Shown here: in pieces, positions 24,866 to 44,463 of the stretch
Layout: every line of letters begins with the position of its first letter
Position numbering within the stretch: the stretch's first letter is position 1
Translations under genes and position numbers: made by a program
The notes under the pieces: generated by a model
The model's database searches: none
What the model was told of the DNA's origin: nothing
What the model saw: the letters and a program-made list of their open reading frames with translations, nothing else
Assembly: GCA_023717565.1 (NCBI GenBank)
Contig: JAMQPI010000408.1
Location: 1 to 51,935, forward strand
Direction of reading: 5' to 3'
From: Pyrinomonadaceae bacterium
GTDB lineage: Bacteria; Acidobacteriota; Blastocatellia; Pyrinomonadales; Pyrinomonadaceae
DNA length: 51,935 bases

Positions 24866-25028
24866 GGTTGCTAGTCGCGCGTCCGTATTGCTACGGAATA
24901 CGTGTCGGGAGAGAAGACCATTCTTCGCACCGGCGCTCCGATGTCTTCGGCGGTCGTTATTTCCGTTCCGTTCTGAAGGTCCCAGGCCTTTACCGCCGGT
25001 TGAGGACATCGAGCTGGAAAGAAGATCT

Positions 25029-26888
25029 TTAAGGCAGGCGGCGCAAAACGAATGAGCCCGCACCGCCCCCGCCCCAGATTGGCTTGGGTAAGTCAGGATA
25101 GTCGCGCGGCATGACGACGGTTATGTACCTCGCAAGGGACAATTCGGTAATAGGATCGGGTGGATTATAACCATCCTGGTCGCGCCAGTGTTTTAGTACG
25201 TGATGAGTAAATACCCCGTGGCTCAATTTGACCATCTCTCGCGCCAAGGCATTACCGGCACAAGCTCCCAGCACCAACCTACCGCGCACACCGGCGAAGA
25301 TTTGCTGAGTTACATTTTGTAAACGGTCTCTGACATTTACGACTTGCTTGATATTGGCGGCAAATCCAGCGTGACAACAATCCAGGAGTAACAATGAGTT
25401 GGGCACTTTCACCCGCGCCATCAAGGTATAAACCAGGTTCTCCATCTCAAGACCGCTTAAGGCGGGCGCGCTCGGATCCGTATCGTAAAGTATCAGATAT
25501 GCGGTCTCATTATTTCCGGGGTCGATCTGACCGTGCCCGGAGAAATGAAAGACAAAGCAACTCTCAGGATGCGGATCAGCCAAGGTGGCCTGATGTAAAG
25601 CTTTGAAAGCATCTTTGATTGAGCTGTACGTCGCATCTTTACCGGTTATTTTGGTGACGCTAAAACCTGATTTCATCAGCAGCGCTTCCATATCGAGAAC
25701 GTCCTGTTCAGCATAGCTCAACGGGTTCAAGATATAATCACCCTTCTCCTGATGCTGGTATATGTTGACGCCCACCAGAAGGGCCAGCCGTTTCTCCGGC
25801 GCGTTTGGGTCTACCTTCATCGGACCCGGCGCAAGTTGACGATCTCTCTGAGGAGCTGTTCCTTTATCCTGCTGACTGAGCTCTGGCGCTGGAAGTTCGT
25901 CTACGAGGCCGTGCTGTTTGATGAAATCGCTAAAACCCTCGCCGGCCAATTGCGGGGGCGGGCCTTCCAGAACATACCCGCGTGTAATGAGAGCTTTAAG
26001 TCCCTGTTCAGCCGGGGCCTTTCCGTGTGCCAGGTCATAAAGCACCTGCTTCTCCGGGTCGCTGCTGTGATCCCAGACATATTGATGTTGTGGGCTTGCC
26101 CTTTTGGCGAAAGAGAGACGTAACTGATTAGTGTCGAGGTGTCCTCCATTTGTTTCGCGCAAATCCCAGGCGAGGCTACAGCACAACTGGAGAAAATACG
26201 TGTGGGTCCCCGCCAGAGAGATGATTGCAGTCGCTTCGGCGTCGCTGAAGCGGCTGCCTGGCAGATTTTTTACCAGTTCCTCAGCCTCGCGTTGATTGAG
26301 CGGCTGGAGGCGCTCCTGGAAAAAAAAGTTGAAAAAGGGAGAGCCGAGGACATCCGAATGCGCGATTTTATTGAGCGGGGCAACCGATGCGACGACGAAC
26401 CCCAGAGGGTATCTCATAGCCAAGGAACGCAGATTCTCGAAAAAGGGCATATCAAATTCCGAGGCGCGCGCCACCAGATCGAACTCGTCAATCAGCAAAA
26501 TCAAACGTTTCCCAGATTTTTTCAGCTTGATGAGAAACTTATAGAAGCCGGTGTAATCTAATGGCGGGTCATCCGTCACAAGTTCACCGGCTTCAACGAG
26601 AGATAGTGTAAGCATCCGGTAGAAGCCTGCGGGACTCTGCGGATTTAGGCTTAGCATATCAATACTGGCAACGACGAGGTCCGGCGTGGCAGCGGCCTCG
26701 CTTTCAAGATATCTCAGCAGAGAAGTTTTCCCGAATCGCCTTTCGCCAAGAACAGAGATGGAATCAGGCAGCGGGTCGACCCTGGTTATATTCCGGAGGA
26801 TTCTGTTGGCCAGCGCGCCATGTGGACCGAGTCTCTCATTGAAATAGAAACGGGACTTGACCGGATTGAGGGTGTAAGGATTAGACAT
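25029..26888 (-). CDS. ATPase-caspase fusion protein (619 aa)
   Basis: N-terminal P-loop ATPase: Walker A GERRFGKT at residues 48-55, Walker B-like LILLIDEFD near 130, and THTYFLQLCC, a motif of STAND-like or archaeal-type ATPases. A linker rich in Pro and Gln (about 330-370) leads to a C-terminal caspase-like peptidase C14 domain beginning RLALLVGVNIYQ. Its dyad is intact: His452 in FHFSGHGQ and Cys505 in LLLDCCHAGF. ATG 26888 has GGAGGT upstream; the long gene upstream ends at 26881, so the two overlap by 8 bases and are probably translationally coupled. The likely role is an NTP-switched protease effector; this is inferred from architecture. Confidence 0.9.
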   Translation of the reverse strand: MSNPYTLNPVKSRFYFNERLGPHGALANRILRNITRVDPLPDSISVLGERRFGKTSLLRYLESEAAATPDLVVASIDMLSLNPQSPAGFYRMLTLSLVEAGELVTDDPPLDYTGFYKFLIKLKKSGKRLILLIDEFDLVARASEFDMPFFENLRSLAMRYPLGFVVASVAPLNKIAHSDVLGSPFFNFFFQERLQPLNQREAEELVKNLPGSRFSDAEATAIISLAGTHTYFLQLCCSLAWDLRETNGGHLDTNQLRLSFAKRASPQHQYVWDHSSDPEKQVLYDLAHGKAPAEQGLKALITRGYVLEGPPPQLAGEGFSDFIKQHGLVDELPAPELSQQDKGTAPQRDRQLAPGPMKVDPNAPEKRLALLVGVNIYQHQEKGDYILNPLSYAEQDVLDMEALLMKSGFSVTKITGKDATYSSIKDAFKALHQATLADPHPESCFVFHFSGHGQIDPGNNETAYLILYDTDPSAPALSGLEMENLVYTLMARVKVPNSLLLLDCCHAGFAANIKQVVNVRDRLQNVTQQIFAGVRGRLVLGACAGNALAREMVKLSHGVFTHHVLKHWRDQDGYNPPDPITELSLARYITVVMPRDYPDLPKPIWGGGGAGSFVLRRLP

Positions 26889-29800
26889 CAGTGTGACCTC
26901 CGCCGTTGGTGGGTGTCGAGTGCTCGTCATTGTATTTTATGGCCGTCGCGAGACTGTCGTACCGCTTTTGCACAAGCCATCTTTGAAAGAGAGGAACAAC
27001 AAACGTGAGCCTCGTTTGATCGTCTTGTTGGATGATGCCACGCTCCGTCAAGCGCTTGACCACCTTGCCAATAGTTAAACTGATTTTGGCCGCAGCGAGT
27101 TGTTCTGAGATTGACGCTAATGAGACATGGGTGGTCGGCTTATCCTCGCTTGCCATGATCGCAAGCACGAGTCTTTCATCGGAGCTGCAATCCGTTTCCG
27201 TCCAGGGATAACCGATATTCTGCTCTCCACTTTCCAGGGCCCGTTTGACGGCTTCTTCAACGTAAGTAATTGTCATCTCATTTAAGCCGGACTCGTTACG
27301 GACATCCAGGAGTGTCTTGCACACGAGCTGTGTGAAGTAGGGGTGACACCCGGCGACTCTCACGATCTCATCGACCGCCAATGATTCGATTGTGTACCAG
27401 GGCTTGACCGGCTCGGTGATGAGCTCGCGCGTATCTTTCTCCGGCAGTTTACCGATTGTAATCGGCACAGCGAGATTGAAGAAGACAGAGTAATACTCAC
27501 CTGTCAGCTCAAGTAGTTTGTAGGTTCCGGCGATGAGAAAGAGCACCGAAGCGTGCTGCATCAAATGCCTGAAGAAATCAAGCACATGGTCATTCAGTTT
27601 CTTGTCATCAATGAGCGTTTTGATGCGGTCGAACTCATCAAGCATCAGAAGGAGGCGCCGATTGCCGAGTCTCTCCGTGATGGGTTTGAGAAACTTGAAT
27701 TTGAAGGTATTTCTCGGAGACTCATCGAAATCGGAGCCGGTTAACTGGGGAACTTGCACATCGACCTCCAGCAAATCCGCTCCCATATTAAGAGCAATGC
27801 CAGAGAAGAACTCGCTCTCATCTTTGCTGCCAGTCAGGCCCTGGACGTCGATATATACAGGGAGGTAAGTGCTTTGCGTGTCCTTTTTCAGGAGGGCAGC
27901 CAGGCGTAAGAGAACCGAAGTCTTGCCAGTCCGGCGTTGTCCCCGGAGCAAGAGAATATTTTGCCCGGCGGCCGGCGCCAGATTGTCTTGAATAATTTTC
28001 AAGACGTCGCCCCGGCCAACAAATAAATTATCGCTAGTCACCGGCAGGCCCGTCACATACGGATTGCTGGCTCTGACGAATTCGGTCTTCTGGACGGGCA
28101 GCGGCGCGAGGTCGCCGAGACAGACGAAAGCTCCCCAATAATAGGGGGAGGGGAATTTTTGCCGGATCGCCGATTGCGCCTGCTGTAAGGCTCGCGACTG
28201 ACTCTTCCCTTCTGCGATGCGCCGATAAAATTCCTGCATCAATTCGGCGGTTTGCTCGTCCGGCACTTGCCACAGATTCATGACAAGCATCTTTGCTCCG
28301 GCGAGGAGAAAAGCTCGCTGCAAGCTAACAACACTCTCGTTAGTAACTCTCTCCCCGTAACCCGTCTGGCAGGCCGAGAGTGTCACTAACTCGGTGCCTG
28401 AGAGGTCCAGGTTCAGAATCTCTTCCGCGGTCAAGAGGCCGTCCTCAGCGACCGAGGGCGGATCCCCGCCACGCAGCCAGGTATTGGCGCCAGCCAGAGC
28501 AATACCTGACTGTCGCAGAGTATGCTCTGCCCCTTGACTGCGCAGGCGGGCCAACCCATCACCACCGGGCCCGCCAATGGTCCCGAAGTCCAGAGAAGTG
28601 TGGTTGATTTCTCTGGGGCGATCCGCGAGGAAAAATCCATGCGCAGCGACGTGCAAGATACGTGGAGAGCGGAAAGCCTTGAGACTCTTTTTCAGTGCCT
28701 TATCGCCGAGCCACGGGCGGACTTGTAGAATCGAGGCGACAAGCTCTCCCTCAACGCGTGTGCCTGGCAATCGAACGAAAGTGGAAAGGCCCTCCATTCC
28801 GTGCCCTGAACGTCTCACCTTTTTCTTGGTCGACGTCGCCAGATCATAGTCCGGGTCAGCGATGATGAGTGTCTCGGTGGGTACACTTGTCGGGAGGATT
28901 TCAAAACGCAGCGCGTCACGGCCAGTATGAAGATAGCTGAAATGATATTTATCGATCAGGTATCCTTCGTTGAGGGGCAGCGCAGCGAATGACAAGTTGA
29001 CGAGGTTACTAGCAGGAGCCAGCAACAGATATGTTTGATCCTCGAGTAAAGGGACTAAGGGATCGAAAACTGCTGTCCGAAGATCATTAGCATGTTCGCC
29101 GGCAGATAGTGAGGCCGATCCTGATTCCGGTATGAGACCCCCGCCGGCCGTTGGGGGATCATTTGAAGTATTTGAGATAGACGCCCTAAACGCGTTGACC
29201 AGTTTGTCAATCGGCTCAGCCTCTCCCAAATCAACCAACTGCACCTTGTCGGGTTCTCTGGCCGGAAGAACAAAGGCCAGATAGCGCGGAGACTTCCAGC
29301 TCGGCTCCCCCAGAGCATGGTTCGCTTGAAAGTTGTACACGTTGAGCCTTACGAATTCGACCAATACAGACTTTTCAGGCAAAGCATGGGCTACGCTTCG
29401 GCGTTCCACACTCCGGAGTCGACGGGATAACTTGATTTCGGGAATTTCGTGTGCCAATTCACCTTCAAGCCGTTCTTTCTGGGTGTTCCAATCATTCAAA
29501 AGTTGTTGCTGGGCGATCAGCCCCCCCGGAGTTTGCAAAATCTTCTGGGCGATCTGTGTGCGCAAGCTGATGAGGTCTCTCAGCTTCACATCCAACCCGG
29601 GATAACGATCAATCAAGGTCAACTCACGCTGGGCGGCCAGAGCTTCTACCATGATGGCCTTGCGCCGTAGGACTAGATCGAAGATTTCGCGAATCGCCGC
29701 CGCCGATCCTTTAAAGTATTGGAGGACCAGCGAGAGAAACATATTGAAATTGTCTTCAATGGCCGTGATGTACATCTTCCGCTGGCGCTCTGAGCCGATG

Positions 29801-32800: not shown

Positions 32801-33417
32801 CATGATTGAATAAGCTCCTCGCGTGCTGCTACCAAACTATCGGTCGAGGCCCTTGTTGTATCAACGGTGGGAATGCATCTGACTGCTGCACCTCCCATGC
32901 CTCTGGTTAATACACCTGAGTAGCAGGTATCTAACACCAGTGTCACGATCAATCCTTTAGCAACCATCCTCTTGATTAGGAACAACAGTTCGACATCGCG
33001 CAGATAACGCCCCGGCAATTTGCCGATGTCGGCCGGAACGAGCGAGTTGTCAAGTCCGTCCCGCCCCTTGATTTCAGGAAACATGGTCGAGGCGCGTCGA
33101 CCGGGGCCGGAATAATGGATATAGACCTGATCGCCAGGCTGGGCCACATCGGTCAGTTTTTTGAAGGCGGCGACCATGTTCTCGTAGGTGGGCCAGTCTT
33201 CTTGGGACTCAACGGAACTCGCAGCACTACTTGGAGCTGTTAGTTTCAAGATGTGCTCGCTCTTGCGCCCCCAACGTTTTTTTAGAACCTCTTCAAGTTG
33301 GAGCACATCACGGACGCAGCCGCTGAGGTCTGGGTAGTAACTGCCATCGGGCAATTTGTTCGGCGTGTAACGGTCAATACCGATTAGTAGGGCATACAAA
33401 TTGGGGTTTATGATCAT
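26881..33417 (-). CDS. Giant fusion: caspase-like / 12 TPR / CHAT protease / ATPase (2178 aa)
   Basis: Domains in order: caspase-like peptidase C14 (residues about 5-330), in which Cys165 (LDTCYSG) is kept but the catalytic His is Pro105 (HYSGPG); a DUF4384-like beta domain (about 500-660, LLDLQPDWAISEVHP); 12 kinesin-light-chain-type TPRs (about 700-1200, unit like GRYTEAETLYKQALEI); a helical linker; a CHAT protease (about 1390-1770) with intact dyad His1593 (LHVAAHGFF) and Cys1683 (LSACQTGYG); and a C-terminal ATPase with Walker A GQRRTGKTS near 1825, LLLMLDEFD, the GCHPYFTQLVC motif and a winged-helix end. The TPRs are likely a sensor or scaffold, the ATPase a switch and CHAT the active protease. 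It overlaps the next gene by 8 bases. Its N-terminal 650 residues are paralogous to the divergent gene at 34129. Confidence 0.9.
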   Translation of the reverse strand: MIINPNLYALLIGIDRYTPNKLPDGSYYPDLSGCVRDVLQLEEVLKKRWGRKSEHILKLTAPSSAASSVESQEDWPTYENMVAAFKKLTDVAQPGDQVYIHYSGPGRRASTMFPEIKGRDGLDNSLVPADIGKLPGRYLRDVELLFLIKRMVAKGLIVTLVLDTCYSGVLTRGMGGAAVRCIPTVDTTRASTDSLVAAREELIQSWPDSAFPQTGRDYGGSGWFPEWKGHVLLAACHSSESAYEYAFNGQERNGVLTYWLLDSLRRSTPDLTFRQLHNRIVAKIHSQFVQQTAQLEGEFDRTVFFGQQEELLPFEVLQVDTQSQRVLIKAGQDRDIRPGSRLIIYPPGQPDLGQTDKSLVLAEIEKVGPTESWAKLSLMSNWSKTVEPGARAVHLDPEALLRLSLRVRLVRQSENPLTPSIDQDSALNQIAEALKQENSRLINLVADDYADYQVAVNPDSEYEIWDPAGNLIPNLRPALRTDDHAAPARLVQRLIHLSKYRNVLMFENNNVLSPLAGKILIELNRLPPDYEPGSHPIPQMPLNSGSPLTFNVGDRVMLRVCNTSQRTLAVSLLDLQPDWAISEVHPNADVDHALLEPGEQNALTMPLQVALPSGFQQGTDVIKAFATIAVTSFRWLELPPIDQPSIRTRGIGRGSANPLEELLAVNPQDAETLDQALLAAQSVEWTTAQIEVRIQAQKSPEEQIEELDVQIVKLFLEGNYEKAIEIATQARDLIRQHVGEHTTAFASNLNTVATLFKQVARYEAAEPLYLQSLDIHRALGEEDKPEYAESLNNLAELYRETARYGEAEALYQQALEIHRVRFSQGSNKRDYSITLNNLALLYEARGDFLKAEELLIQARDVVKDLSGESHPDFAAVTGNLGELYRLMGRYDDAEDLLKHSLKIIRTAMSENSPALPSKLNNLGLLYKDIGDYDVALPLFAEAMSILRTSQKTNHPDFAQTINNLAELYRAIGRYTEAETLYKQALEIKSRSLGPTHPSYGESLNNLAELYTELGKYSEANSLYSDALKIRSVLGDSHPDYAATLLNMAKLQHVLGRYDEAERLYQQALDIQRKVLTPDHLDTARTLSNLAELYLETSKHAAAQSLYEQALKIRRTVLGSDNPEVAVSFCDLARAHRRMGDYAAAEPLYRQAYQIQRISLGEEHPAFVQTLNSLAVVLAATGREKDAMELAQRALGIEDSMIELIFSIGSERQRKMYITAIEDNFNMFLSLVLQYFKGSAAAIREIFDLVLRRKAIMVEALAAQRELTLIDRYPGLDVKLRDLISLRTQIAQKILQTPGGLIAQQQLLNDWNTQKERLEGELAHEIPEIKLSRRLRSVERRSVAHALPEKSVLVEFVRLNVYNFQANHALGEPSWKSPRYLAFVLPAREPDKVQLVDLGEAEPIDKLVNAFRASISNTSNDPPTAGGGLIPESGSASLSAGEHANDLRTAVFDPLVPLLEDQTYLLLAPASNLVNLSFAALPLNEGYLIDKYHFSYLHTGRDALRFEILPTSVPTETLIIADPDYDLATSTKKKVRRSGHGMEGLSTFVRLPGTRVEGELVASILQVRPWLGDKALKKSLKAFRSPRILHVAAHGFFLADRPREINHTSLDFGTIGGPGGDGLARLRSQGAEHTLRQSGIALAGANTWLRGGDPPSVAEDGLLTAEEILNLDLSGTELVTLSACQTGYGERVTNESVVSLQRAFLLAGAKMLVMNLWQVPDEQTAELMQEFYRRIAEGKSQSRALQQAQSAIRQKFPSPYYWGAFVCLGDLAPLPVQKTEFVRASNPYVTGLPVTSDNLFVGRGDVLKIIQDNLAPAAGQNILLLRGQRRTGKTSVLLRLAALLKKDTQSTYLPVYIDVQGLTGSKDESEFFSGIALNMGADLLEVDVQVPQLTGSDFDESPRNTFKFKFLKPITERLGNRRLLLMLDEFDRIKTLIDDKKLNDHVLDFFRHLMQHASVLFLIAGTYKLLELTGEYYSVFFNLAVPITIGKLPEKDTRELITEPVKPWYTIESLAVDEIVRVAGCHPYFTQLVCKTLLDVRNESGLNEMTITYVEEAVKRALESGEQNIGYPWTETDCSSDERLVLAIMASEDKPTTHVSLASISEQLAAAKISLTIGKVVKRLTERGIIQQDDQTRLTFVVPLFQRWLVQKRYDSLATAIKYNDEHSTPTNGGGHTDV

Positions 33418-34128
33418 TGGCTCAATCAGCTTTCTTCACCGCTTACGGACACACAAATTTGCATCCATCGGGTCTTAAGAGTAGGTGAAGGATCAGAGCA
33501 TTCATTGCAAAGACTATCAAAGTGTTTATTGCCCGTGCGCCAGAAGGTAACAGCAGCTATGGGAAAGGAACGAAACCGTGAAATAGAATGCCGAGGGTGG
33601 TAGCCAGCAGGTGCGAGTAAGGGCCTGTTCCTTTGCGCAAAACATAAGTCCCACGCTGCAATATGTCAATAGTTGTTCAACCTTGAAGTTCAATCCCTCA
33701 CCGGACGTCTCAGCCTGATTATCAGCTTACGAGATCTTTCAGAGTGGTACTGAAAAGGAGGAAGGCAGCCACGTTTCATAGCCATGAAATTACGTCCGAC
33801 TTGAGGTTTACACGTCTAGTGCTAGCGTCCAAAACAACCATTGACATTAGGTCTTCACAGTATTACTGTTCGGCTCGCCTAAAAGCTCATTCTCTCTAGG
33901 CTGTCGGACCTTTGTTCGCCTCATCAAACTCTTGGAATTCCTTACTGAGGCGACTTTGTCGAGCAGCCGTAAAAAGGTGTTCCGTGCTTGAGTCCAGAGA
34001 CTAACCCTTGTAGCACTGAATCTTTTTATTTGTAGAGTATGCGCCTGCGCCAAAAGAGTATCCCTTGATCCTTTTTCCCGAAAGCCGTTTTCCAAATTTC
34101 AACTAACGCCCGTGTCGAGGAGACAACG
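33418..34128. other. Divergent control region between the two protease operons
   Basis: A 711-bp non-coding region from which both arms of the protease cluster are transcribed outward. A perfect TTGACA occurs at 33841-33846 on the plus strand, but no good -10 box at the right distance, so it is not called a promoter. GAGGAGACAACG before ATG 34129 is the ribosome site of the plus-strand gene. No repeat or RNA structure stands out. A minus-strand frame at 33847-34095 shows no recognisable protein. Confidence 0.45.
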
Positions 34129-37100
34129 ATGGCCGACACCAACTCCAAACTCTACGCGTTATTGATTGGCATCGACCGCTACATGCCGAACACATTGCCC
34201 GATGGCGGTTACTACCCAGACCTCGGCGGCTGCGTCCGCGATATCACGCATGTCGAGCAGATGCTCCGCAACACGCTCGGCTTACCTGACGATCGCATCT
34301 TCAAGCTCACCGCGCCCGTAACCAAAGGTGAGACCACCCAGGAGCCGGAAGATCAGCGGCCGTCGTACGAGAATATGGTGGCGGCATTTAAGAAGTTGAC
34401 CTCCAGGGCAGGCCCAGGTGATCAGGTCTACATCCATTATTCCGGCCATGGCGGACGCACGCCGACCCTGTTCCCCAAGCTTAAAGGAGCCAATGGGCTC
34501 GACGAGTCGCTCGTTCCGACAGACATCGGCGACAAGGGTACGCGCTATCTGCGCGATGTTGAAATGTCGCATTTGCTCAAGGCCATGAGCGACAAAGGGC
34601 TGCTCGTGACAATGGTGCTTGACAGCTGCCACTCCGGCGGAGCCACCAGAGGCCTGGGCGGAGGAGCGGTCAGAGGCATATCCAGCGTAGACACCACCGA
34701 GCGGCCCGCCGATAGTTTGGTAGCAACCAACGAGGAGTTATCACAAACCTGGCTCGGCGTTACATCCGGCAAAACCCGCAGCGTCAATGCCGCGAGTGGA
34801 TGGCTGCCTCAGATGAAAGGATATGTTCTGCTCGCCGCCTGCCGCTCTAATGAGTTGGCCAATGAGTATGCCTTCGACGGCAAGGAAAGAAACGGAGCGC
34901 TCACCTACTGGTTACTTGACGCCCTTAAGCAGAACGGTTCAGGCCTAACCTATCGCATGCTTTATAACCGGATCGTGGCGAAGGTTCATGCCAAGTTCGT
35001 GGAACAGACGCCGCAACTCGAAGGCGAAGGCAATCGTGAAATCTTCGGCAGCGATCAGATGAAATCCCAATATGCGGTAAATATACTGAAGGTTGATCCG
35101 CAAAAGAAACGGCTGTTGCTAAACACGGGACGGACGCAGGGGATCAGCAAAGGAACTCAATTTGCCGTATATCCGGCGGGCGCCGATTTCAACAATACCG
35201 AGAAGCGGCTGGCGGTGGTTGAGCTGGAGGATCCTACGGAGACCGAGACATGGGCCAACATCGTACAGCAGTTACGCGAAGGCGAAATCCAGGAGGGTGC
35301 GCAGGCCTTATTGTTGGGAGTCGGAATTCGCATGCGGGGCAGAATCCGGTTAGTGCGCCAGGATACGCTGCCGGCTGCTGTGGATCAGGAGTCGCCGCTG
35401 CAACGCTTGCAAGATGAGCTCAACGAGAACGGGGCGGCAAATGAAAACAAGTGGGTGCGACTCGTCGCCAAAGATGAGGAGGCGGATTTGCAGGTGGCGA
35501 TCAATGCCCACGGCGAATATGAAATCTGGGACGCGGACGGAAAAGCCGTCCCCAACTTGCGTCCAGCTCTGCAGGGCGCCGATAAAAATAATGCAGCCAG
35601 GGTATTGCGGAGGCTGATCCACCTAACCAAGTATCGGAATGTGAGATTGATCGACAACCCGGATCCGAACTCCACACTGGCGCGAAAATTGATCATTGAA
35701 TTGGGGACGAGAAATCCGCCGGCGAACGGTGAGGAAGGTATTGGCACCTTCGGAGAAACGTTTGGTCTGCGGTCAAGACCACTCTCGATTGGTGAAGTGG
35801 TGTGCTTGCGCGTCAAGAATCTGTCGAATAAAGCTGTTAACGTTACCGTACTCGATCTACAACCCGACTGGGGCATCTCGCAAGTACATCCTCCACCTAA
35901 TCCCGAAACCGGGGAGGCAAAGGACTACGAGCTTCTTGAGCCGGGTGACGAGAATGCGCTCCTCATTCCGCTTAGAACTGATCTCCCGGAGGGATATCAG
36001 CAAGGGACGGACGTAATTAAGGCCATCGCGGCCGTCGAAGGCACAAGTTTTCGTTGGCTGGAACTCCAGTCCCTCGATCAGCCATCTTCAACCAAGGGAA
36101 TCACCAGGGGGCCAGCCAACCCGCTTGAAGAGTTGATGAAAGCATTCGCCTCAGACCAGCTTACGCGGCAGGTCGTCAACCTTACCGCTCCGAAGGTCAA
36201 GAGCTGGGGTACGGCTGAAGTGGAGGTGCGCGTCCGCCGTCCAACCATTGCGCATGTCCACGATCCGAGCATTTCTTTACTGCAATCCGCTTTCGACGAA
36301 GTGATCGCTAAAACGGATGGGGAAACAAAAACGAGAAGCGTCGGCGGTCGAGAAGAGTTAATTAGACGCCCAGAACTAAGCGATCCAATAATCAGCGAAA
36401 TTACGCAGTACTGCCTGGCAGTGGCAAACGGGGACATCTCGCCTGATGATTTGCCCTCACTCGATCAGGACAACAAACTAACTCCAGGACAATCGCGGGC
36501 ACTGGGGGAGGCTCAGGAGCGTGGGGCGGTTGACCAGGTGAAATACTGCGCGAGCATGGCCGTCGGGATGGCCAAAAACCTGTGGGCGGCGAAGTTCCGC
36601 GGTGATACAACGCTATACAATCAATACCAGGCCGCATTAACGAAACCTTTCGGCGATTGTGATACCAAGTACAGGGACGCCCTGATCCAATATGCCAAAT
36701 TCCTAGCCAATAAAGGCGAGATTCCCTACATCAAGTGGAAGCTACAAAGCGATTTCGTGATTGATGATAAAGAAAAGCTGCCGGCAAATGCCGTGATTGG
36801 AATTGTCGCCGATTGGGGTACAGGTGAGCCGGAGGCGGTAGAGGTTCTAAGGCAGGTCAAGAGTCATAACCCGCAAGTCGTAATGCATCTCGGCGATATT
36901 TACTACGCCGGAACCGAGCATGAGGTTGAGAACTACTTTTACCAGCCGTGGAAGCGTGTCCTCGAACTCGATACATCGAAGATTTTGTCTCTGGTGCTCC
37001 CCGGCAACCACGATCTGTACGCTGGTGGAAAGCCATTCTATGACTTGCTGGAGAGGCTTGGCCAGGGGGCGAGTTTCTTCTGTCTGAGAAATGAGCACTG

Positions 37101-37614
37101 GCAATTGATCGGTCTGGACACTGCGCTTAACGATAGACTCGCAGGCCAGCCAACTGCTCTTGACCCAACCGAAGCCGAGTGGCTGATCGACAAGATTGAG
37201 AATGCGGGGAAGAGGCGCACTATACTGCTCTCTCATCATCAGTTGTTTTCGACCAATGAGCAGTTCGACGGCAAGAGTTACAACCAAAACCTCTACGATC
37301 AGCTCTCTGCCATTCTGCCGAAAGTTGACATGTGGTTGTGGGGACACGAGCACGACCTCGTTCTCTTTGATGAGTATAAAGGTCTGAAGCGCGGGCGATG
37401 CATCGGCGGTTCGGCCTTCCCTGTCGGCAATTTCGAGATGCCGACAACGCATGTCAACCCAGACGTTCCCTTCAACCAAGACGTGGCATTAAGCAAGGGT
37501 TCGGCTTTTTACCAGCACTGCTACGTAATGATCAAACTCGACGGTCCCAGTGCGAAGATCTCCTATTACGAAGACCTCGACGGCGGAAGGGTGGTGTACA
37601 CGGAGAACCTTTAG
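34129..37614 (+). CDS. Caspase / metallophosphoesterase fusion protein (1161 aa)
   Basis: The N-terminal peptidase C14 domain (about 5-310) has an intact dyad, His107 in HYSGHGGR and Cys167 in LDSCHSGG. It is followed by a DUF4384-like beta domain (about 530-665, LDLQPDWGISQVHP) and, after a helical stretch (about 700-885), a calcineurin-like phosphoesterase (about 888-1161). All metal-binding motifs are present: Asp895 (ADWGTG), Asp923 (GDIYY), Asn960/His961 (GNHD), His1036/1037 (SHHQ) and His1073/His1075 (GHEHD). Residues 1-665 are paralogous to the giant fusion on the other strand. The C-terminal enzyme could hydrolyse a nucleotide, cyclic nucleotide or nucleic acid; the substrate is not readable. 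It starts the plus-strand arm, 80 bp before the WD40-caspase gene. Confidence 0.9.
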   Translation: MADTNSKLYALLIGIDRYMPNTLPDGGYYPDLGGCVRDITHVEQMLRNTLGLPDDRIFKLTAPVTKGETTQEPEDQRPSYENMVAAFKKLTSRAGPGDQVYIHYSGHGGRTPTLFPKLKGANGLDESLVPTDIGDKGTRYLRDVEMSHLLKAMSDKGLLVTMVLDSCHSGGATRGLGGGAVRGISSVDTTERPADSLVATNEELSQTWLGVTSGKTRSVNAASGWLPQMKGYVLLAACRSNELANEYAFDGKERNGALTYWLLDALKQNGSGLTYRMLYNRIVAKVHAKFVEQTPQLEGEGNREIFGSDQMKSQYAVNILKVDPQKKRLLLNTGRTQGISKGTQFAVYPAGADFNNTEKRLAVVELEDPTETETWANIVQQLREGEIQEGAQALLLGVGIRMRGRIRLVRQDTLPAAVDQESPLQRLQDELNENGAANENKWVRLVAKDEEADLQVAINAHGEYEIWDADGKAVPNLRPALQGADKNNAARVLRRLIHLTKYRNVRLIDNPDPNSTLARKLIIELGTRNPPANGEEGIGTFGETFGLRSRPLSIGEVVCLRVKNLSNKAVNVTVLDLQPDWGISQVHPPPNPETGEAKDYELLEPGDENALLIPLRTDLPEGYQQGTDVIKAIAAVEGTSFRWLELQSLDQPSSTKGITRGPANPLEELMKAFASDQLTRQVVNLTAPKVKSWGTAEVEVRVRRPTIAHVHDPSISLLQSAFDEVIAKTDGETKTRSVGGREELIRRPELSDPIISEITQYCLAVANGDISPDDLPSLDQDNKLTPGQSRALGEAQERGAVDQVKYCASMAVGMAKNLWAAKFRGDTTLYNQYQAALTKPFGDCDTKYRDALIQYAKFLANKGEIPYIKWKLQSDFVIDDKEKLPANAVIGIVADWGTGEPEAVEVLRQVKSHNPQVVMHLGDIYYAGTEHEVENYFYQPWKRVLELDTSKILSLVLPGNHDLYAGGKPFYDLLERLGQGASFFCLRNEHWQLIGLDTALNDRLAGQPTALDPTEAEWLIDKIENAGKRRTILLSHHQLFSTNEQFDGKSYNQNLYDQLSAILPKVDMWLWGHEHDLVLFDEYKGLKRGRCIGGSAFPVGNFEMPTTHVNPDVPFNQDVALSKGSAFYQHCYVMIKLDGPSAKISYYEDLDGGRVVYTENL

Positions 37615-37694
37615 CGTTTGGAGTCTATTTCATAGTTGTTCACGAAAACCACTAGCGCTTAATACCAAATCCAGGCTACGAGGTTAAGGTCCTA

Positions 37695-40600
37695 ATGATC
37701 ATCTCACCGAGGCCAAGGAATCGTCTCAAGCTGGGGCGATGTGAGTCGTTCGAGCAAGCTCTATGGCGCAGCGACGATCGCCCTCACGTCATAGTTGATG
37801 CCCGTGCTCGCCCACACCGGTGCGCGGACGTGGCGTGGAGCCCTGACGATCGAATGATCGCAGCGGCGACGACAGGCGGCGTGAAAGTCTGGACGCTTGG
37901 CCCGACCGCCGAGATGCGTACCTTCCTAGTGGAAGGTTCCGGGGCAACGTTAAGTGCGTTTAGTGGGGATGGCCGGTTGCTGGCCTCCGCCTCGGGGGAG
38001 GGGCGATTGGCGGTCTGGGAACTCGCCTCCGGTCGACGTCTCTGGTCTGTCCTCGCGCATTCGAAAGGCTTCGCCAGTCTCAAGTTTAATCCTGCGAGCG
38101 ACGCCGTCATTTCTGTCGGGCTCGATGGCGCGGTGAAGATTTGGAGCGTCTCCCCTGGGAAGCTCTTGCGCGCGGTTCCGGTTCCAAAGCTGTCTGTCGA
38201 CGGGTGCGCCGTCAGCGCTGACGGGCGACTCGTCGCCCTCGGCGGCGACGGCGGTGTCACTCTCCTGGATACGCGTAGGGGCGCGCAACGGCGGGGAGAT
38301 ATACCGGGCGATGTCTGGGTAAACAGCGCAGTCTTTGCCGCGGAGGGAGCAATCCTCGCCACCGGCGGATCCGACGGCGTTGTGCGCCTCTGGAGTACCG
38401 GAACCGCAAAGCTCTTGCGAAAAATCTCCCGCCCGTTCGGTCAATCGGTGCCAGGAAAACGCGGCCGGTCGATACTGCGGCGGTCCGCGGACGGCCGTCC
38501 CAGCGCGGGCGAGGCAGGTCGCTCCGGTCCTGACCTGGTACTGTCCCTCGCCTTTGGATGCGATGATTCACTACTTGCTGGAGGAACGGTGGGTGGCGGC
38601 GTGGCGGTGTGGAAAGCCAAATCCGGGTCTCTACTTCATTTCACCAATGCGCACACGTATTACGTGACTGGGGTCGCGTTCAGCCACGATGGGAGCATGC
38701 TGGCCACGTCTGGAGGGCTCGATCGGATCGTTAAGATCTGGGACGTCGGCCGCAAGCTTGAGGAGTTGGTGACGCTCATCGCGCTTGGCGACGATCAATG
38801 GGCGGCGGTGACGCCCGATGATCGCTTCGATGCGTCGAGCGGAGGTCTCGAGTACATTCACTGGGCGTTCGGCACACGAGCGCCGGTACCTGTGAAGCAG
38901 GTGCCTGAGCAGCCGCCCGATCCCACCATCTTGCCATCAGTCGGTCAGAGGCGAGCGCGCGGACGCACACGCACACGCACACCGCGAACGAGTTTGACTT
39001 CGTTCCCAAAGCAACCCGAACCACCAGTCTCTTCGGAGGAGGGATCGCGGAAACCGGTACTGACCGTCCGGACGCGACCGTCACATCGACTGCGAAGTGT
39101 CGCGTGGAATGAGGACAGCACTATTCTCGCGGGTGGCACCGAAGATGGAAACATCGATATCTGGGATCGCGCGACCGGTCGAGAGCTGCGCACCTTGCGC
39201 GGCCACGACGACACGATCACCTCCCTCATCTTTGCCGGACCAGACATTTTAGCCAGCGGCGCGAGGGATAGCACAGTGCGGCTCTGGAACATAAGAACCG
39301 GCGAGCTGCTTCACACATTCCTCGTCGGGTTGCCGGATACCGGAGTCTCGATCGCATCCGCGGTGGCGGACGGACTCCTGATATGCGCAAGTTACGAAGG
39401 CACGATCCGATGGCTGCACCTAGGGCAACGGACATGCGTGAACACGGCGCGAATACTCTTCGAAGAAGACGGCATGACGTCGCTCCTCAGCGAACTGGTC
39501 ATAGTCAGTCCGGACGGTCGGATGGCTATCCGTCCATACGATCGCTACACGGTTGCAGCTTTCGATCTGCCGGCGCAAAAGCTGCGATACGAGTTCCACT
39601 CGGACGATACGCCTGGCGGGATCGCCTTCGACAAGAATGGCAAACGGTTTGCCGTGGGCGGTGCCACCACCCGACAAATGATCATCCTGGGAGGCCGACA
39701 AGGAAAGGGGGCCGCGGAACATCCACTCGAGACCTACGCCGTCGATGTGCGACGGACCGAAGACGGAACCCGAGTCCAGTCGCATCTGGGCCATCACCGC
39801 AACGTCGTCGCCCTTGCGTTCAGACCCGACGGCGCCTCACTCGCGACGGGAGCCTGGGAGGGCACGGTTCGAGTCTGGGGAAAAAACACCAGGAAGGAAC
39901 AACAGCGACTGGAAACCCGTTTCGACGCGGTGCCGGCCGTGGCTTACAACCGGGACGGGTCGTTGCTGGCTACGGGAGAAGCAAGGGGTCACTTCGACGG
40001 CCGGATCAGCGTGTGGGACACGGCGTCCGGGAAGCGGGTGCAGACTTTCGAACGCCACATTGGTGATGTCCATCCAGTTCGGTTCAGTCCCGATGGGACA
40101 CTGCTGGCCGCGGCCGGTGAAGATGGGATCCTGCGCTTGTGGCGCCTGAGACTCCGAACGCCGCCGACACTCATCAAAGGCCACACTGGACGGATCTTCT
40201 CACTCGCATTCTCTCCCGATGGTCAATACATCGCCACCGCCAGTTGGGACGGCACCAGCCGGCTGTGGCGTACCGATACCGGCGAGCTTGTGTGGATGCT
40301 CGATTCTCGGGCGACGGTGAGGGTTTGGTCGGTGGCGTTTAATCCAGATGGGCTGAGTCTAGCCACGGGATGCGACGACGGCAGCGTGAGGGTTTGGGAC
40401 ATCGCTACCGGTGAGCAGTTGCGGACGATGGAAGGGGGACCGCCTGCTCACGATGAGGCAGTCTTTGGCTTGGCGTTTTCTCCTGATGGCGAGTTGCTCG
40501 CGACCGGGGCCATGGATCATCGCATCGTGCTCTGGGACATCAGCACCGGCAAAGCCCGAAGAGTGATTGCCCACGATGCATGGGTCTCTAGCCTGGACTT

Positions 40601-42722
40601 CAACAACGACGGGACAATACTCGCGGCCGGCGATCTCGATCAGGAGATCTGTCTCTGGGACTTGGAAACGCGCAAGGCACGCCGGCGTTTGAGCGGGCAC
40701 GCCAAGCCGGGGCACATCGAGAAGGGGACGTCCGTGCGGTTCAGCCGCGACGGCACTCTGCTGGCGAGCGGAGGCACCGACGGGACCTTAAGGTTGTGGG
40801 ACCCGGCCGCGGGCAAGCAGCTCGCGGTGGTTCATGGTCATTCGGGACCGGTCGCGTCGGTGGACCTCAACGCCACCAATACGCTCCTCGCCGCCGGTAG
40901 CAATGACGCCAGCGCTAGCATCTGGGACCTTCGGGATCCCATGGCACCAGCGAAGATCTGTAACCTCTATTCGTTTCCGGACGGCACCTGGGCGGTGGTC
41001 GACGCCCGCGGCCGTTTCGATGCCGCCAACGGCGGCGACATCCCGTGGTTGCACTGGGTCGTCGGTCTGGAAACCGTCGCTTTGAGCCAGTTGAAGGAGC
41101 GGTATTACGAGCCCAATCTCCTTCCGAAGCTGATGGGCGCCGACGCGGAGCCACTGCGCGACGTGCCGTCGCTGCAAGAGGTGGAGCTTCATCCTGACGT
41201 CGAGCTGCTCGCGGTGGAGTCGGGCGGCAAGCGGGCGCGTATCCGGCTAACCAACCGCGGCGGTGGAATCGGACGCGTAGTCGTTTCGATCAACGGCAAG
41301 GAGGCCAACGCCGACGCGCGCGGCGAGGATCCGGATGTGCTCGCGCCGGAGCTGGAGATGTCCATCGACGTCGCAAAGCACCCATTCCTGAAGCCGGGGA
41401 AGAACGTCTGCGAAGTACGGGCGTACAACGCGGCGGGCTATCTAGTAGGACGACAGCTTAGGTGGGTGTGTCCTGGTCCCCGAAAGTCGACTGAGGCGCC
41501 CAGGCTCTGGGGCGTGGTCGCCGGGGTTTCGGACTATCAGGGAGACAAGCTGGATCTGCGTTTCGCCGCCAAGGACGCAGCCGACTTCGCGGCCGCAGTG
41601 CGAGTCGGAGCGGCGAGGCTGTTCGGGGCCGACCGAGTCCACCTGCGATTGTTGGTGGCGCCCCACCGCCCGTCCGCTACTGAAAGTGATCAGTCCGTCG
41701 CCCCTGGCCGGAGCGCCAACAGCGAGGAACAATGGCCCACGCGCCAGAATCTCCTGCGGGCGTTCGAAGAGGCGCGAGCGGCAAAGTCCGCCGATGTTCT
41801 CATCGTGTATTTGGCTGGCCACGGCGTCAATCAGGGAGGCCAGGACGGCGATTACTATTATCTTACAGCGGACGCGCGAACCGGGGACCTAGCCGATCCC
41901 GCCGTCCGCCAGCAGACCGCCATTTCGAGCCGCGAGCTAACGGAATGGATTCGCCTGATACCCGCGCTCAAGCAGGCTGTGATCCTGGACACGTGCGCCG
42001 CGGGGCGTTTCGTCGAAACGCTGAGTGAGCACCGAACCATCCCTAGCAGCCAGGCACGTGCGCTGGAGCGCCTGACGGATCGGATGGGTACCTACATCCT
42101 GGCTGGGTCAGCCGCTGACGCCGTCAGTTACGAATCGAGCCGTTACGGGCAAGGCCTCCTGACGTACAGCGTGCTGTTCGGCATGCGCGGTGCCGCGCTT
42201 CGCGATGAGGAATTCGTGGATATCGCGAGGCTCTTCGAGCATGCAGCAGACTATGTCCCGCAGCTCGCGACCGATCTCGGCGGCATTCAGCGCCCGCTCA
42301 TCGCGTCGCCCGCGGGAGGAAGCAGCTTCGACATCGGATGGCTGGAGCGAACCGATCGCGAGCGGATTCCACTGGCCATCATCCGACCGCTGGTGCTGGG
42401 CGTCCAGCTCGAGGAGGAAACCACGTGGAAGGACAGCCTCGAGGTAACGAGAGCAGTGAACGCGATCTTGCGGGAAGAGTCGGCCCGTCCTGAGGCCTCG
42501 GTCATCTTCATCGACGCGCGGGAGCACCCCGACGCCTACCAGCTTCGCGGGCGCTACCGGATCGAGGGTGACCGCGTGACAATGGCGCTAAAGCTCTTTT
42601 GGCGCGAAGAGATGGTTTCCAGCTTCGAACAGTCGGGGCGCCGGTCAGGCGTTGACGCGCTCGCACGCGAGCTGGCTACGCATACAATCGGCCTGGTGGT
42701 CGAGCAGTTTAACCAAGAGTGA
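37695..42722 (+). CDS. WD40 (about 21 blades) / caspase protein (1675 aa)
   Basis: By eye there are 7 WD40 blades in residues about 30-360 and 14 more in about 455-1090, enough for three seven-bladed propellers. Each block is followed by a similar linker: WAAVTPDDRFDASSGG with IHWAFG near 366-390 and WAVVDARGRFDAANGG with LHWVVG near 1095-1120. An Ig-like beta domain (about 1165-1260) leads to a caspase-like peptidase with intact dyad His1376 (YLAGHGVN) and Cys1434 (LDTCAAGRF). The last 120 residues resemble TolB/FlgO-type nucleoside-binding domains. The protein is probably cytosolic, with a sensing WD40 scaffold and protease effector. GC use is visibly higher than in the adjoining protease genes (41 of 60 bases in one hand-counted line). 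The 80-bp gap to the preceding gene suggests an operon. Confidence 0.9.
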   Translation: MIISPRPRNRLKLGRCESFEQALWRSDDRPHVIVDARARPHRCADVAWSPDDRMIAAATTGGVKVWTLGPTAEMRTFLVEGSGATLSAFSGDGRLLASASGEGRLAVWELASGRRLWSVLAHSKGFASLKFNPASDAVISVGLDGAVKIWSVSPGKLLRAVPVPKLSVDGCAVSADGRLVALGGDGGVTLLDTRRGAQRRGDIPGDVWVNSAVFAAEGAILATGGSDGVVRLWSTGTAKLLRKISRPFGQSVPGKRGRSILRRSADGRPSAGEAGRSGPDLVLSLAFGCDDSLLAGGTVGGGVAVWKAKSGSLLHFTNAHTYYVTGVAFSHDGSMLATSGGLDRIVKIWDVGRKLEELVTLIALGDDQWAAVTPDDRFDASSGGLEYIHWAFGTRAPVPVKQVPEQPPDPTILPSVGQRRARGRTRTRTPRTSLTSFPKQPEPPVSSEEGSRKPVLTVRTRPSHRLRSVAWNEDSTILAGGTEDGNIDIWDRATGRELRTLRGHDDTITSLIFAGPDILASGARDSTVRLWNIRTGELLHTFLVGLPDTGVSIASAVADGLLICASYEGTIRWLHLGQRTCVNTARILFEEDGMTSLLSELVIVSPDGRMAIRPYDRYTVAAFDLPAQKLRYEFHSDDTPGGIAFDKNGKRFAVGGATTRQMIILGGRQGKGAAEHPLETYAVDVRRTEDGTRVQSHLGHHRNVVALAFRPDGASLATGAWEGTVRVWGKNTRKEQQRLETRFDAVPAVAYNRDGSLLATGEARGHFDGRISVWDTASGKRVQTFERHIGDVHPVRFSPDGTLLAAAGEDGILRLWRLRLRTPPTLIKGHTGRIFSLAFSPDGQYIATASWDGTSRLWRTDTGELVWMLDSRATVRVWSVAFNPDGLSLATGCDDGSVRVWDIATGEQLRTMEGGPPAHDEAVFGLAFSPDGELLATGAMDHRIVLWDISTGKARRVIAHDAWVSSLDFNNDGTILAAGDLDQEICLWDLETRKARRRLSGHAKPGHIEKGTSVRFSRDGTLLASGGTDGTLRLWDPAAGKQLAVVHGHSGPVASVDLNATNTLLAAGSNDASASIWDLRDPMAPAKICNLYSFPDGTWAVVDARGRFDAANGGDIPWLHWVVGLETVALSQLKERYYEPNLLPKLMGADAEPLRDVPSLQEVELHPDVELLAVESGGKRARIRLTNRGGGIGRVVVSINGKEANADARGEDPDVLAPELEMSIDVAKHPFLKPGKNVCEVRAYNAAGYLVGRQLRWVCPGPRKSTEAPRLWGVVAGVSDYQGDKLDLRFAAKDAADFAAAVRVGAARLFGADRVHLRLLVAPHRPSATESDQSVAPGRSANSEEQWPTRQNLLRAFEEARAAKSADVLIVYLAGHGVNQGGQDGDYYYLTADARTGDLADPAVRQQTAISSRELTEWIRLIPALKQAVILDTCAAGRFVETLSEHRTIPSSQARALERLTDRMGTYILAGSAADAVSYESSRYGQGLLTYSVLFGMRGAALRDEEFVDIARLFEHAADYVPQLATDLGGIQRPLIASPAGGSSFDIGWLERTDRERIPLAIIRPLVLGVQLEEETTWKDSLEVTRAVNAILREESARPEASVIFIDAREHPDAYQLRGRYRIEGDRVTMALKLFWREEMVSSFEQSGRRSGVDALARELATHTIGLVVEQFNQE

Positions 42723-42830
42723 TGTTGATTTCTGGAATTCGGTTATAGATGTCAGGCGTTCAATCTTTGAACGCCTACCGCAATGAGGTAGTGCTCTCCT
42801 CGAATTGTCCGCCTAAGTTATTGATTTGAT

Positions 42831-42890
42831 TGGTAGGCGCGTGGGGATTTGAACCCCAGACCCCTACCGTGTCAAAGGTAGCGCTCTAGG
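42831..42890 (-). tRNA. Pseudo-tRNA: 3' part of a tRNA-Val(GAC)-like gene
   Basis: On the minus strand the 3' half of a tRNA is clear: AGAGC of the D arm, an anticodon arm CTACC...GGTAG with GAC in the loop, a good T arm (TGGGG-TTCAAAT-CCCCA), and CGCGCCT with an encoded ACCA end. The anticodon loop has 8 bases instead of 7, and the sequence where the 5' acceptor strand should be (AAAAGAG) does not pair with CGCGCCT. So the 5' half is missing. This is the usual footprint left at an integration site in a tRNA gene, not a working tRNA. Confidence 0.6.
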
Positions 42891-42944
42891 TCTGGGTAAC
42901 TCTTTTCAAATCAACAAGCACTAATTTTGCTCAATAAAATTCGC

Positions 42945-43012
42945 ACTGCACTTACTGCATCCACTGCTTCAACTGCTCGTTCGGCACATTTTTGTGTGCC
43001 AAACTGTGTGCC
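42945..43012. repeat. Short direct repeats beside the tRNA remnant
   Basis: ACTGC occurs four times at exact 9-bp spacing (42945, 42954, 42963, 42972), and TGTGTGCC occurs twice, 12 bp apart (42993 and 43005). Together with the GGCACA just before them these resemble arm-type integrase sites or short iterons. They sit 55-120 bp from the tRNA 3' fragment. The remainder of 42723-43258 has no supported gene. Confidence 0.4.
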
Positions 43013-43258
43013 CACTTTTTATCACATGTCTTTGCTCCATGACGAAGAGAATTTTCTTCGTACCACGGTGGTTCGTTGAATCTCCGTGTCCTATATATAT
43101 ATAGCTCAAGTCCAACACTCTCTAGTGTTCCGATCACGCCGCCGACGACTGTCAGTGTCAGGGGCGTAGTTTGCCGAGAGTGACTGACATAATGACCGAC
43201 GAGCCCTGCGTCGCCACGCGGTTTCCTCCCGATCAATGCGAAGACGCTGGCGTGTATG

Positions 43259-44431: not shown

Positions 44432-44441
44432 TTCTGACAGT
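44424..44441. repeat. Inverted repeat at the DUF2254/integrase junction
   Basis: ACTGTCA-ATTC-TGACAGT, a perfect 7-bp inverted repeat lying between the DUF2254 start and the integrase fragment. It could be an operator of the integrase gene or an end of the inserted segment. Confidence 0.4.
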
Positions 44442-44463
44442 GCACGGATTAAGGAGAACAGCT

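What the first reader, a model, noticed from the sequence alone, without database searches (positions are those of the whole stretch)
25029..42722. Four-gene cluster of clan CD protease proteins with ATPase, TPR, CHAT, phosphoesterase and WD40 modules
Two divergent arms encode ATPase-caspase, caspase-like/TPR/CHAT/ATPase, caspase/metallophosphoesterase and WD40/caspase proteins. Five protease domains, two NTPases and two large repeat scaffolds in 17.7 kb is far beyond a normal housekeeping locus. Caspase, CHAT, STAND-like ATPase and WD40/TPR combinations are known building blocks of NTP-dependent bacterial conflict systems and of TPR-CHAT effectors. I do not know this exact four-protein set as a named system. 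Proposed logic: repeats sense a trigger, ATPases switch, caspases and CHAT cut, and the phosphoesterase destroys or resets a nucleotide signal.
Basis: partly seen in the sequence, partly recalled or inferred. Interest (0 to 1): 0.88.

Follow-up and report, generated by a model that had tools for sequence, protein, structure and literature searches.

The report
Caspase-phosphoesterase fusion with paired ATPase switches
A bacterium carries a cluster of four large proteins in which caspase-like proteases are joined to ATP-driven switches and to a phosphate-cutting enzyme, and relatives show that parts of this wiring recur, so it is probably an infection-triggered alarm or self-destruct device rather than housekeeping.

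Summary
The four genes are real: five clan CD domains (four C14, one CHAT), two NTPases, TPR and WD40 scaffolds, one phosphoesterase. The exact set was not found elsewhere, but parts recur. (1) P0003 fuses an active metacaspase to a purple-acid-phosphatase-like enzyme; three more genomes, probably all Acidobacteriota, carry this fusion, each with CHAT and nSTAND1 NTPase genes downstream. (2) P0002->P0001 resembles the predicted two-gene nSTAND2 operon of Kaur 2021: an nSTAND2-type gene adjoins the P0002-type NTPase gene in 17 of 29 other loci; the partner ends in a kinase in 3 of 5 scanned, here in a caspase. (3) P0002's caspase lost its catalytic histidine and is a paralogue of P0003's active one. 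(4) The full-length phosphoesterase module on four plasmids closes a TIR-caspase operon each time. Best reading: an NTP-gated protease conflict system. Whether the phosphoesterase erases a signal or is a protease-released effector is open. Nothing was tested at the bench. New variant of a known kind.

The parts
25029..26930 (-). P0001: nSTAND2-type NTPase (about 25896-26801) followed by C14 caspase (about 25176-25793), His and Cys intact; possible start Met15 at 26888
   Evidence: nSTAND2 47.0 bits, cut-off 24; C14 57.9 bits; Walker A/B, FSGHG, LLDCC
26881..33417 (-). P0002: pseudo-caspase (about 32488-33417), beta-rich tail (about 31318-32487), TPR (about 29818-31200), CHAT protease (about 28111-29091), C-terminal NTPase (about 26923-28035)
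33100..33114 (-). YSGPG (residues 102-106): catalytic His of P0002's caspase replaced by Pro
33418..34128 (.). 711-bp shared intergenic region between the divergent arms; one sigma-70-like match, no more than shuffles give
34129..37614 (+). P0003: active metacaspase-fold C14 (about 34129-35043), beta-rich tail (about 35044-36243), phosphoesterase module with purple-acid-phosphatase-like motifs (about 36244-37611)
37003..37020 (+). GNHD metal-binding motif of the phosphoesterase (role recalled)
37695..42722 (+). P0004: WD40 propellers followed by C-terminal C14 caspase (41517-42308), dyad intact (LAGHG, ILDTC); higher G+C than the other three genes

Best explanation
An NTP-gated proteolytic conflict (abortive-infection type) system built of two coupled arms. 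Arm A (P0002, P0001) is a paired-NTPase switch: the TPRs of P0002 read a trigger, the two STAND-type NTPases co-assemble, and assembly brings together the CHAT protease of P0002 and the caspase of P0001. Arm B (P0003, P0004) is the output: P0003's active caspase is docked to, or held by, its dead paralogue at P0002's N-terminus, is released or activated by proximity when arm A assembles, and works together with its fused purple-acid-phosphatase-like phosphoesterase; P0004 is a WD40-scaffolded second caspase. The phosphoesterase most likely acts on a nucleotide, either ending an ADP-ribose-type signal or, once cut free, destroying a nucleotide or nucleic acid. Shown by sequence and neighbourhood: architectures, residue states, paralogy, the recurrent NTPase pair, the conserved fusion with its CHAT and NTPase company, and the plasmid TIR-caspase-phosphoesterase operon. 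Inferred: trigger, assembly, docking by the pseudo-caspase, order of cleavage, substrate of the phosphoesterase, and antiviral role.
For: Fusion conserved: L076 53.6% over 1164 aligned positions, G499 59% full length, G469 split by contig ends. In these three the fusion is followed on the same strand by CHAT(-SIR2) and nSTAND1 NTPase genes, in G469 with an alpha/beta-hydrolase between; in L076 a WD40-caspase comes next; G499 has a divergent TPR-CHAT gene, like the window. NTPase pair: 30 of 396 phylum genomes, own included, hold a P0002-type NTPase at E<=1e-30; in 17 of 29 loci beyond the window and L124 an nSTAND2-type gene lies next to it on the same strand, with a Ser/Thr kinase at the caspase's position in 3 of 5 partners scanned. 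A published prediction describes a two-gene nSTAND2 operon. Pseudo-caspase: His to Pro in P0002 and L124, both fused to this NTPase type; 61 of 64 family members keep His and Cys. Tree: (P0002,(P0003,L076)), support 100/97 and 100/95. C14 clustering: 34 further C14 ORFs in 858 kb around 57 family genes, about 1.2 expected at the mean and 2.4 at the highest density of 15 such genomes. Plasmids: four of four records with the full-length phosphoesterase module have TIR and caspase genes just upstream.
Against: The exact gene set was found once. All fusion loci are probably from one class. Among 20 neighbouring ORFs scanned with Pfam none is a mobile-element or known defence gene; PADLOC, run on the four proteins only, gives generic caspase, TPR, PrimPol and HEAT-ARM matches. 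Standalone relatives of the phosphoesterase in G345 and G404 sit with GMC oxidoreductases, cytochromes or a subtilase, not with caspases; two more (L202, L203) have neighbours without a match to my probes. P0004 differs in G+C. The window cluster has neither the SIR2 nor the TIR of its relatives; the own genome has only a CHAT-part match to the CHAT-SIR2 protein, on another contig. Both window NTPases look active, whereas in the published pair one is eroded. Twelve of 29 NTPase loci have no partner in view, some at contig ends.
Confidence: 0.55

Rival explanations
1. Signal eraser: the phosphoesterase hydrolyses the nucleotide signal that activates the caspase, so P0003 is a self-limiting caspase with its off-switch attached, as in a TIR-caspase pathway.
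For: The same phosphoesterase module (31-34% identity) closes TIR-caspase operons on the four plasmids that hold it full length; in the one copy scanned the TIR genes match ThsB profiles and a small gene between caspase and phosphoesterase weakly matches RyR; a phage RyR-domain enzyme is reported to cleave cyclic ADP-ribose signals (abstract and passages of PMC13232231); type IV Thoeris TIR signalling activates a caspase-like protease (passage of PMC12847820).
Against: No TIR or SIR2 gene in the window cluster; the RyR match is below the Pfam cut-off (16.8 bits against 27.4, E 0.0082) and was tested in one of four copies; substrate unknown.
Confidence: 0.3
2. Protease-gated effector: the caspase cuts at the junction and frees or opens the phosphoesterase, which then destroys nucleotides or nucleic acid, as caspase-activated pro-nucleases do in Canu.
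For: Canu loci pair a caspase (Ig-like fold) with a pro-nuclease that it activates (abstract and passages of PMC12799240); here the two are fused, and the junction reads VRR in all four fusions, basic residues being the known preference of orthocaspases (abstract of PMC6426788); a phage metallophosphoesterase-like protein is reported to disrupt genomic DNA (abstract of PMC12287305).
Against: The enzyme classes differ (MBL in Canu, PAP-like here); no gating loop shown; the phosphoesterase model was unusable (pLDDT 40.1); Pro follows the basic pair in three of four fusions, which disfavours cutting right there (recalled).
Confidence: 0.3
3. Not one system: arm A (P0002-P0001) and arm B (P0003, with or without P0004) are separate devices that happen to abut, in a genome region that collects clan CD proteases.
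For: In the neighbourhoods read, arm A's NTPase pair and arm B's fusion each occur without the other; C14 genes cluster generally; P0004 has a different G+C.
Against: The arms share a paralogous 700-aa region, one copy dead; P0002's copy is sister to the fusion clade; G499 shows a similar divergent CHAT-versus-fusion layout.
Confidence: 0.3
4. Non-defence stress or developmental signalling: a proteolytic regulator of envelope or nutrient stress rather than an anti-invader device.
For: Ordinary neighbours; kinases occupy the caspase position in relatives; in L126 the C14-tail gene lies near a CHAT gene and next to a protein that I read by eye as anti-sigma-like (sequence, no family search).
Against: Patchy distribution, plasmid-borne relatives, and TIR, SIR2 or STAND company.
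Confidence: 0.2

Closest known systems
Predicted two-gene nSTAND2 operon (Kaur et al. 2021, PMC8195603, section 15 read)
   Same: Two adjacent genes each with a STAND-type NTPase; one fused to swappable effector modules
   Different: Both window NTPases keep their Walker motifs; effectors are caspase and CHAT instead of GT4 or HEPN; Pfam nSTAND2 did not match P0002 at 1e-3
Type IV Thoeris (Rousset et al. 2025; the paper itself not seen, passages in PMC12847820 and PMC13373217)
   Same: Caspase-like protease; relatives of the phosphoesterase lie in TIR-caspase operons
   Different: No TIR gene in the window cluster; here the caspase is fused to the phosphoesterase and set beside NTPases
Canu (Tuck et al. 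2025, PMC12799240, abstract and passages read)
   Same: Caspase paired with a second hydrolase; TPR and Ig-like folds in the loci
   Different: PAP-like phosphoesterase fused in cis instead of a separate MBL nuclease; NTPase switches present
Metacaspase-NACHT-WD40 and other multidomain prokaryotic caspases (PMC3501461, PMC8283722, passages read)
   Same: Caspase with STAND, WD40 or TPR modules; the P0003 N-terminal family is common in cyanobacteria and often next to C14-STAND-WD40 genes
   Different: Neither main text holds 'phosphoesterase' or 'metallophos'
Pseudo-orthocaspases (PMC6426788, passages read)
   Same: C14 domain without the His-Cys dyad
   Different: [quoted passage not shown] P0002 has Pro and keeps Cys, fused to TPR-CHAT-NTPase
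Caspase-8 with the pseudo-caspase c-FLIP (recalled; 3h11 appears as a fold match only)
   Same: Active caspase with a dead paralogue
   Different: Bacterial; no interaction shown

Membership tests
Peptidase C14 (P0001, P0003, P0004) | C14 profile above cut-off and His/Cys dyad | tested here: met
   for the profile (P0004 37.3 bits, cut-off 21.4), for the dyads
Peptidase C14, active (P0002 N-terminus) | catalytic His | tested here: not met
   SGPG
CHAT protease (P0002) | PF12770 above cut-off, His and Cys | tested here: met
   210.8 bits; VAAHG and SACQTG
Purple-acid-phosphatase-like metallophosphoesterase (P0003) | PF00149 above cut-off, solved relatives found are PAPs | tested here: met
Purple-acid-phosphatase-like metallophosphoesterase (P0003) | metal-ligand motifs (D-W-G, GDxxY, GNH, SHH, GHxH; their assignment to metals is recalled) | tested here: met
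   present in P0003; ligand roles not tested
Purple-acid-phosphatase-like metallophosphoesterase (P0003) | phosphoesterase activity | not testable with these tools
   needs purified protein
Kaur 2021 nSTAND2 two-gene operon | two adjacent genes with STAND-type NTPases, nSTAND2 in at least one | tested here: met
   (P0001 nSTAND2)
Kaur 2021 nSTAND2 two-gene operon | NTP-binding motifs of one partner eroded | tested here: not met
   Walker motifs intact in both window proteins; eroded in L124
Kaur 2021 nSTAND2 two-gene operon | both NTPases of the nSTAND2 family | tested here: inconclusive
   P0002 has no Pfam nSTAND2 match at 1e-3; the P0002-type protein of L157 matches it weakly (E 0.00042, below cut-off)
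Type IV Thoeris | TIR gene in the operon | tested here: not met
   no TIR family in Pfam scans of 25 window ORFs
Type IV Thoeris | caspase-like protease activated by N7-cADPR | not testable with these tools
   needs assay
Canu | MBL-fold pro-nuclease next to the caspase | tested here: not met
   no MBL family in Pfam scans of 25 window ORFs
Craspase-type TPR-CHAT | partner type III-E effector and CRISPR array (recalled) | tested here: not met
   no such family among 25 window ORFs; no array-like repeat in 24500-43400
CATRA systems | CATRA domains with caspase and TPR | not tested
   named; the defining paper was not seen

The most novel reading that the evidence does not exclude
A new branch of caspase immunity: caspase and PAP-like phosphoesterase form one functional unit (fused in Acidobacteriota, neighbouring genes in plasmid TIR-caspase operons), in which proteolysis and nucleotide hydrolysis are coupled; in the window this unit is governed by a paired-NTPase switch through a dead caspase paralogue that acts as its receptor, a bacterial counterpart of c-FLIP-like control.
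Probability: 0.3. Interest if true: 0.78.

Novelty: new variant of a known kind. Interest (0 to 1): 0.6.

Why it matters
It links two strands of bacterial immunity, STAND-type NTPase switches and TIR-caspase nucleotide signalling, through a shared caspase-phosphoesterase unit. If the phosphoesterase ends an ADP-ribose-type signal, it would be a host-encoded off-switch for caspase immunity; if it is protease-released, it adds a hydrolase class to caspase-activated effectors. The active/dead caspase paralogue pair in one locus makes pseudo-caspase control directly testable in bacteria.

Tried and rejected
Housekeeping locus: rejected, distribution patchy. Known system by catalogue: PADLOC on the four proteins gave generic caspase (P0001-P0003), TPR and PrimPol (P0002) and HEAT-ARM (P0004) matches. 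Insertion-site test: a GH95 relative is in 5 of 16 genus genomes, own included; in the three whose surroundings I fetched the neighbours other than GH95 do not match the window's, apart from one weak TPR-type match, so no empty site could be read. Phosphoesterase fold: model unusable (pLDDT 40.1), not searched. Tail 306-705 of P0003: beta-rich in a good model (pLDDT 82.4); Foldseek also aligned MALT1 caspase-Ig chains, but the tail was not searched alone, so its fold is left open; VIA-align 2 rows mostly cover the caspase. A basic loop insertion near the phosphoesterase active site as a caspase cut site: dropped, a similar insertion is in a copy beside GMC oxidoreductase. Promoter scan of the intergenic region: no excess over shuffles. 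Notion that the phosphoesterase family is always linked to caspases: wrong. No phage record beyond one uncultured phage with a weak caspase-part match. Ten literature searches listed no paper on a caspase-phosphoesterase fusion; the library lacks most subscription papers, so this is not proof of absence.

Rows dropped or not read; 8 of the 65 loci (L105-L112: split, partial or weak) were left out; the 57 kept are mostly cyanobacteria and not independent, ORFs were found with phmmer probes while densities come from a Pfam profile, and downstream counts ask for the same strand while upstream counts do not; 17 plasmid records; I read the surroundings of the three full caspase-unit records and of the four full phosphoesterase records, not of the five partial caspase (H8-H12) and five partial phosphoesterase records (H13-H17); surroundings of the phosphoesterase-only matches in G003, G005, G024, G028 and G044 were not read (that of G032 was, as L202). 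One search scored at most two candidates per genome; 7 loci read, 6 of the 6 other genomes with matches plus G029; 29 loci; 5 first-gene and 5 partner proteins were given to Pfam; in 3 of the 17 pairs (L161, L162, L168) the partner comes first, L160 and L168 have ORFs between, and L185's partner scores weakly; L124's two NTPases are both closest to P0002's. P0004 relatives: 4 loci read, 2 with further C14 genes.

Full report
Observation. The window is one whole contig of a 6.9-Mb genome assembly of 735 contigs. The phylum is inferred to be Acidobacteriota: a genome placed in the same family (G029) holds a protein identical to that of a record titled Acidobacteria bacterium 13_1_20CM_3_53_8, on a contig of the same length. 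Twenty neighbouring ORFs scanned are ordinary: RND efflux, chromate transport, a mu-crystallin-type enzyme, GH95, GH3 and the like.

Anatomy. P0003 and P0002 face each other across 711 bp and share a 700-residue N-terminal unit, C14 plus a beta-rich tail, 51% identical. P0003 keeps the catalytic His107 and Cys167; P0002 has Pro for His and keeps Cys. Of 64 aligned members of this unit 61 keep both residues; the exceptions are P0002, L124 and L092. A model of P0003 residues 1-710 (mean pLDDT 82.4) has a metacaspase fold in about its first 310 residues (Z 26.8 to Arabidopsis metacaspase 9, 264 residues aligned, rmsd 3.3). About 455 C-terminal residues of P0003 form a phosphoesterase whose solved relatives found by profile are purple acid phosphatases (best E 3.6e-7), with the metal-binding motifs present.

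Arm B in relatives. With P0003 as query the caspase unit is in 1 of 58 sampled relatives besides the own genome. Of 395 phylum genomes besides the own one, 4 match the caspase unit and 2 the phosphoesterase at E<=1e-40, with at most two candidates scored per genome. Of 144 relatives of the L076 genome 7 match. Caspase-phosphoesterase fusions are known to me from four genomes: the window, L076 (G429), G499 and G469, the last split over two contig ends. In the three outside the window the fusion is followed on the same strand by a CHAT protein (with SIR2 by Pfam in two; in G469 only by my probe) and an nSTAND1 NTPase; in G469 an alpha/beta-hydrolase lies between. The gene after these varies: WD40-caspase in L076, an unassigned 670-aa protein in G499, FHA-ABC in G469. 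G499 has a divergent TPR-CHAT gene, a layout like P0002 against P0003; in G469 the divergent ORF is unassigned, and in L076 a long opposite-strand ORF without a match to my probes lies upstream. So CHAT and a STAND-class NTPase are near the fusion in 4 of 4, a WD40-caspase in 2 of 4.

The unit outside this phylum. A scan of genome contigs gave 65 loci, mostly Cyanobacteria; also Chloroflexota, a KSB1 and a Syntrophaceae MAG, one Myxococcota, one archaeal MAG, two Acidobacteriota records and four weak hits in other groups. Apart from the L076 fusion most are proteins of about 640-770 aa and nine are of 810-1029 aa. Around 57 of them 34 other C14 ORFs lie in 858 kb, against 1.2 expected from the mean density in 15 of these genomes and 2.4 from the highest. 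A gene within 700 bp downstream on the same strand carries C14, STAND or CHAT in 21 of 55; one within 700 bp upstream in 4 of 44. In four loci of this phylum further clan CD relatives appear: CHAT and C25-like (L122, L123; in L123 C25 is below cut-off), CHAT and C11 (L125), CHAT (L126). Three cyanobacterial plasmids carry the full unit.

Arm A in relatives. A profile of the C-terminal NTPase of P0002 matched 30 of 396 phylum genomes, own included, at E<=1e-30. In 17 of 29 further loci a gene with a P0001-type NTPase lies next to it on the same strand; 12 show none, some because the contig ends. N-terminal modules of the first gene vary in the five scanned: propeller with Ig-like domains, HEAT repeats, N6-methylase with a weak specificity-domain match, and two with nothing but the NTPase; the partner ends in a Ser/Thr kinase in 3 of 5 scanned. 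P0001 has a caspase in that place. Kaur et al. 2021 predicted a mobile two-gene operon with a STAND NTPase (nSTAND2) in both genes, one eroded and fused most often to GT4 or HEPN (section 15 read). The window pair works like this but fails the erosion feature, so I call it a relative, not a member. L124 is a second case of a dead caspase plus tail fused to this NTPase type, His to Pro and Cys lost, with an adjacent NTPase gene. The tree puts P0002 as sister to P0003 plus L076, and L124 far off on a long branch, so the two losses look independent, with the caution that long branches bring.

Link to nucleotide signalling. The full-length phosphoesterase module lies on four alphaproteobacterial plasmids, in each behind TIR (two genes in three records, one in Agrobacterium), caspase and a protein of about 95 aa (the small gene is unannotated in the Agrobacterium record but an ORF is there). 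Only the Rhodopseudomonas copy was scanned: its TIR genes match ThsB profiles, and its small protein weakly matches RyR (E 0.0082, below cut-off). The caspases keep both catalytic residues in all four. RyR-domain phage proteins are reported to degrade or sequester cyclic ADP-ribose signals (abstract and passages of PMC13232231). This makes an ADP-ribose-type signal the best candidate substrate, without proof. Against a fixed link, two standalone relatives lie with GMC oxidoreductases, and with cytochromes or a subtilase.

Mechanism. My reading is a protease switch gated by paired NTPases (arm A), whose output is a caspase-phosphoesterase (arm B), with a dead caspase as docking or holding partner. 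The steps beyond architecture, residues and neighbourhood are inference. Precedents: the caspase-activated pro-nuclease of Canu (abstract and passages) for a protease-hydrolase pair, and type IV Thoeris for TIR-caspase (passages).

Verdict. Observation confirmed; interpretation partly supported; new variant of a known kind. Interest 0.6.

Noticed in passing
L013 7788-11353; L014 8308-11329; L015 7815-11368; L187 5800-9383: Operon TIR(-TIR)-caspase-small protein-phosphoesterase on four alphaproteobacterial plasmids; looks like a Thoeris-IV-type system with two extra genes, the small one perhaps RyR-like.
   Followed up: partly
L157 6118-12280, L158 5589-11386, L168 3630-9051: Paired NTPase genes whose nSTAND2 partner ends in a Ser/Thr kinase; the kinase part of L157 matches PADLOC PD-T4-6 models (E 1e-88).
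   Followed up: partly
L165 5614-11348: N6-methylase with a weak specificity-domain match fused to a P0002-type NTPase, next to a second NTPase gene.
   Followed up: no
L120 6316-11716; L121 3209-12705: Standalone relatives of the phosphoesterase beside GMC oxidoreductase genes, with a subtilase (L120) or RoxA-like cytochrome (L121).
   Followed up: no
L123 6088-12037: C14-tail gene in one run with an HSP70 gene and a weak C25-like gene.
   Followed up: no
G000:C670 5496-13255: Own genome has another contig with a CHAT match and a C14 match about 6 kb apart, perhaps a second clan CD cluster.
   Followed up: no
window 37695-47608: P0004, the DUF2254 gene and the GH95 gene have G+C 0.58-0.66, against mostly 0.48-0.57 to the left; a possible junction between P0003 and P0004.
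   Followed up: partly
L205 250-5830; L206 2-7605: P0004-type WD40-caspases in relatives sit with two further C14 genes each in two of four loci read.
   Followed up: partly
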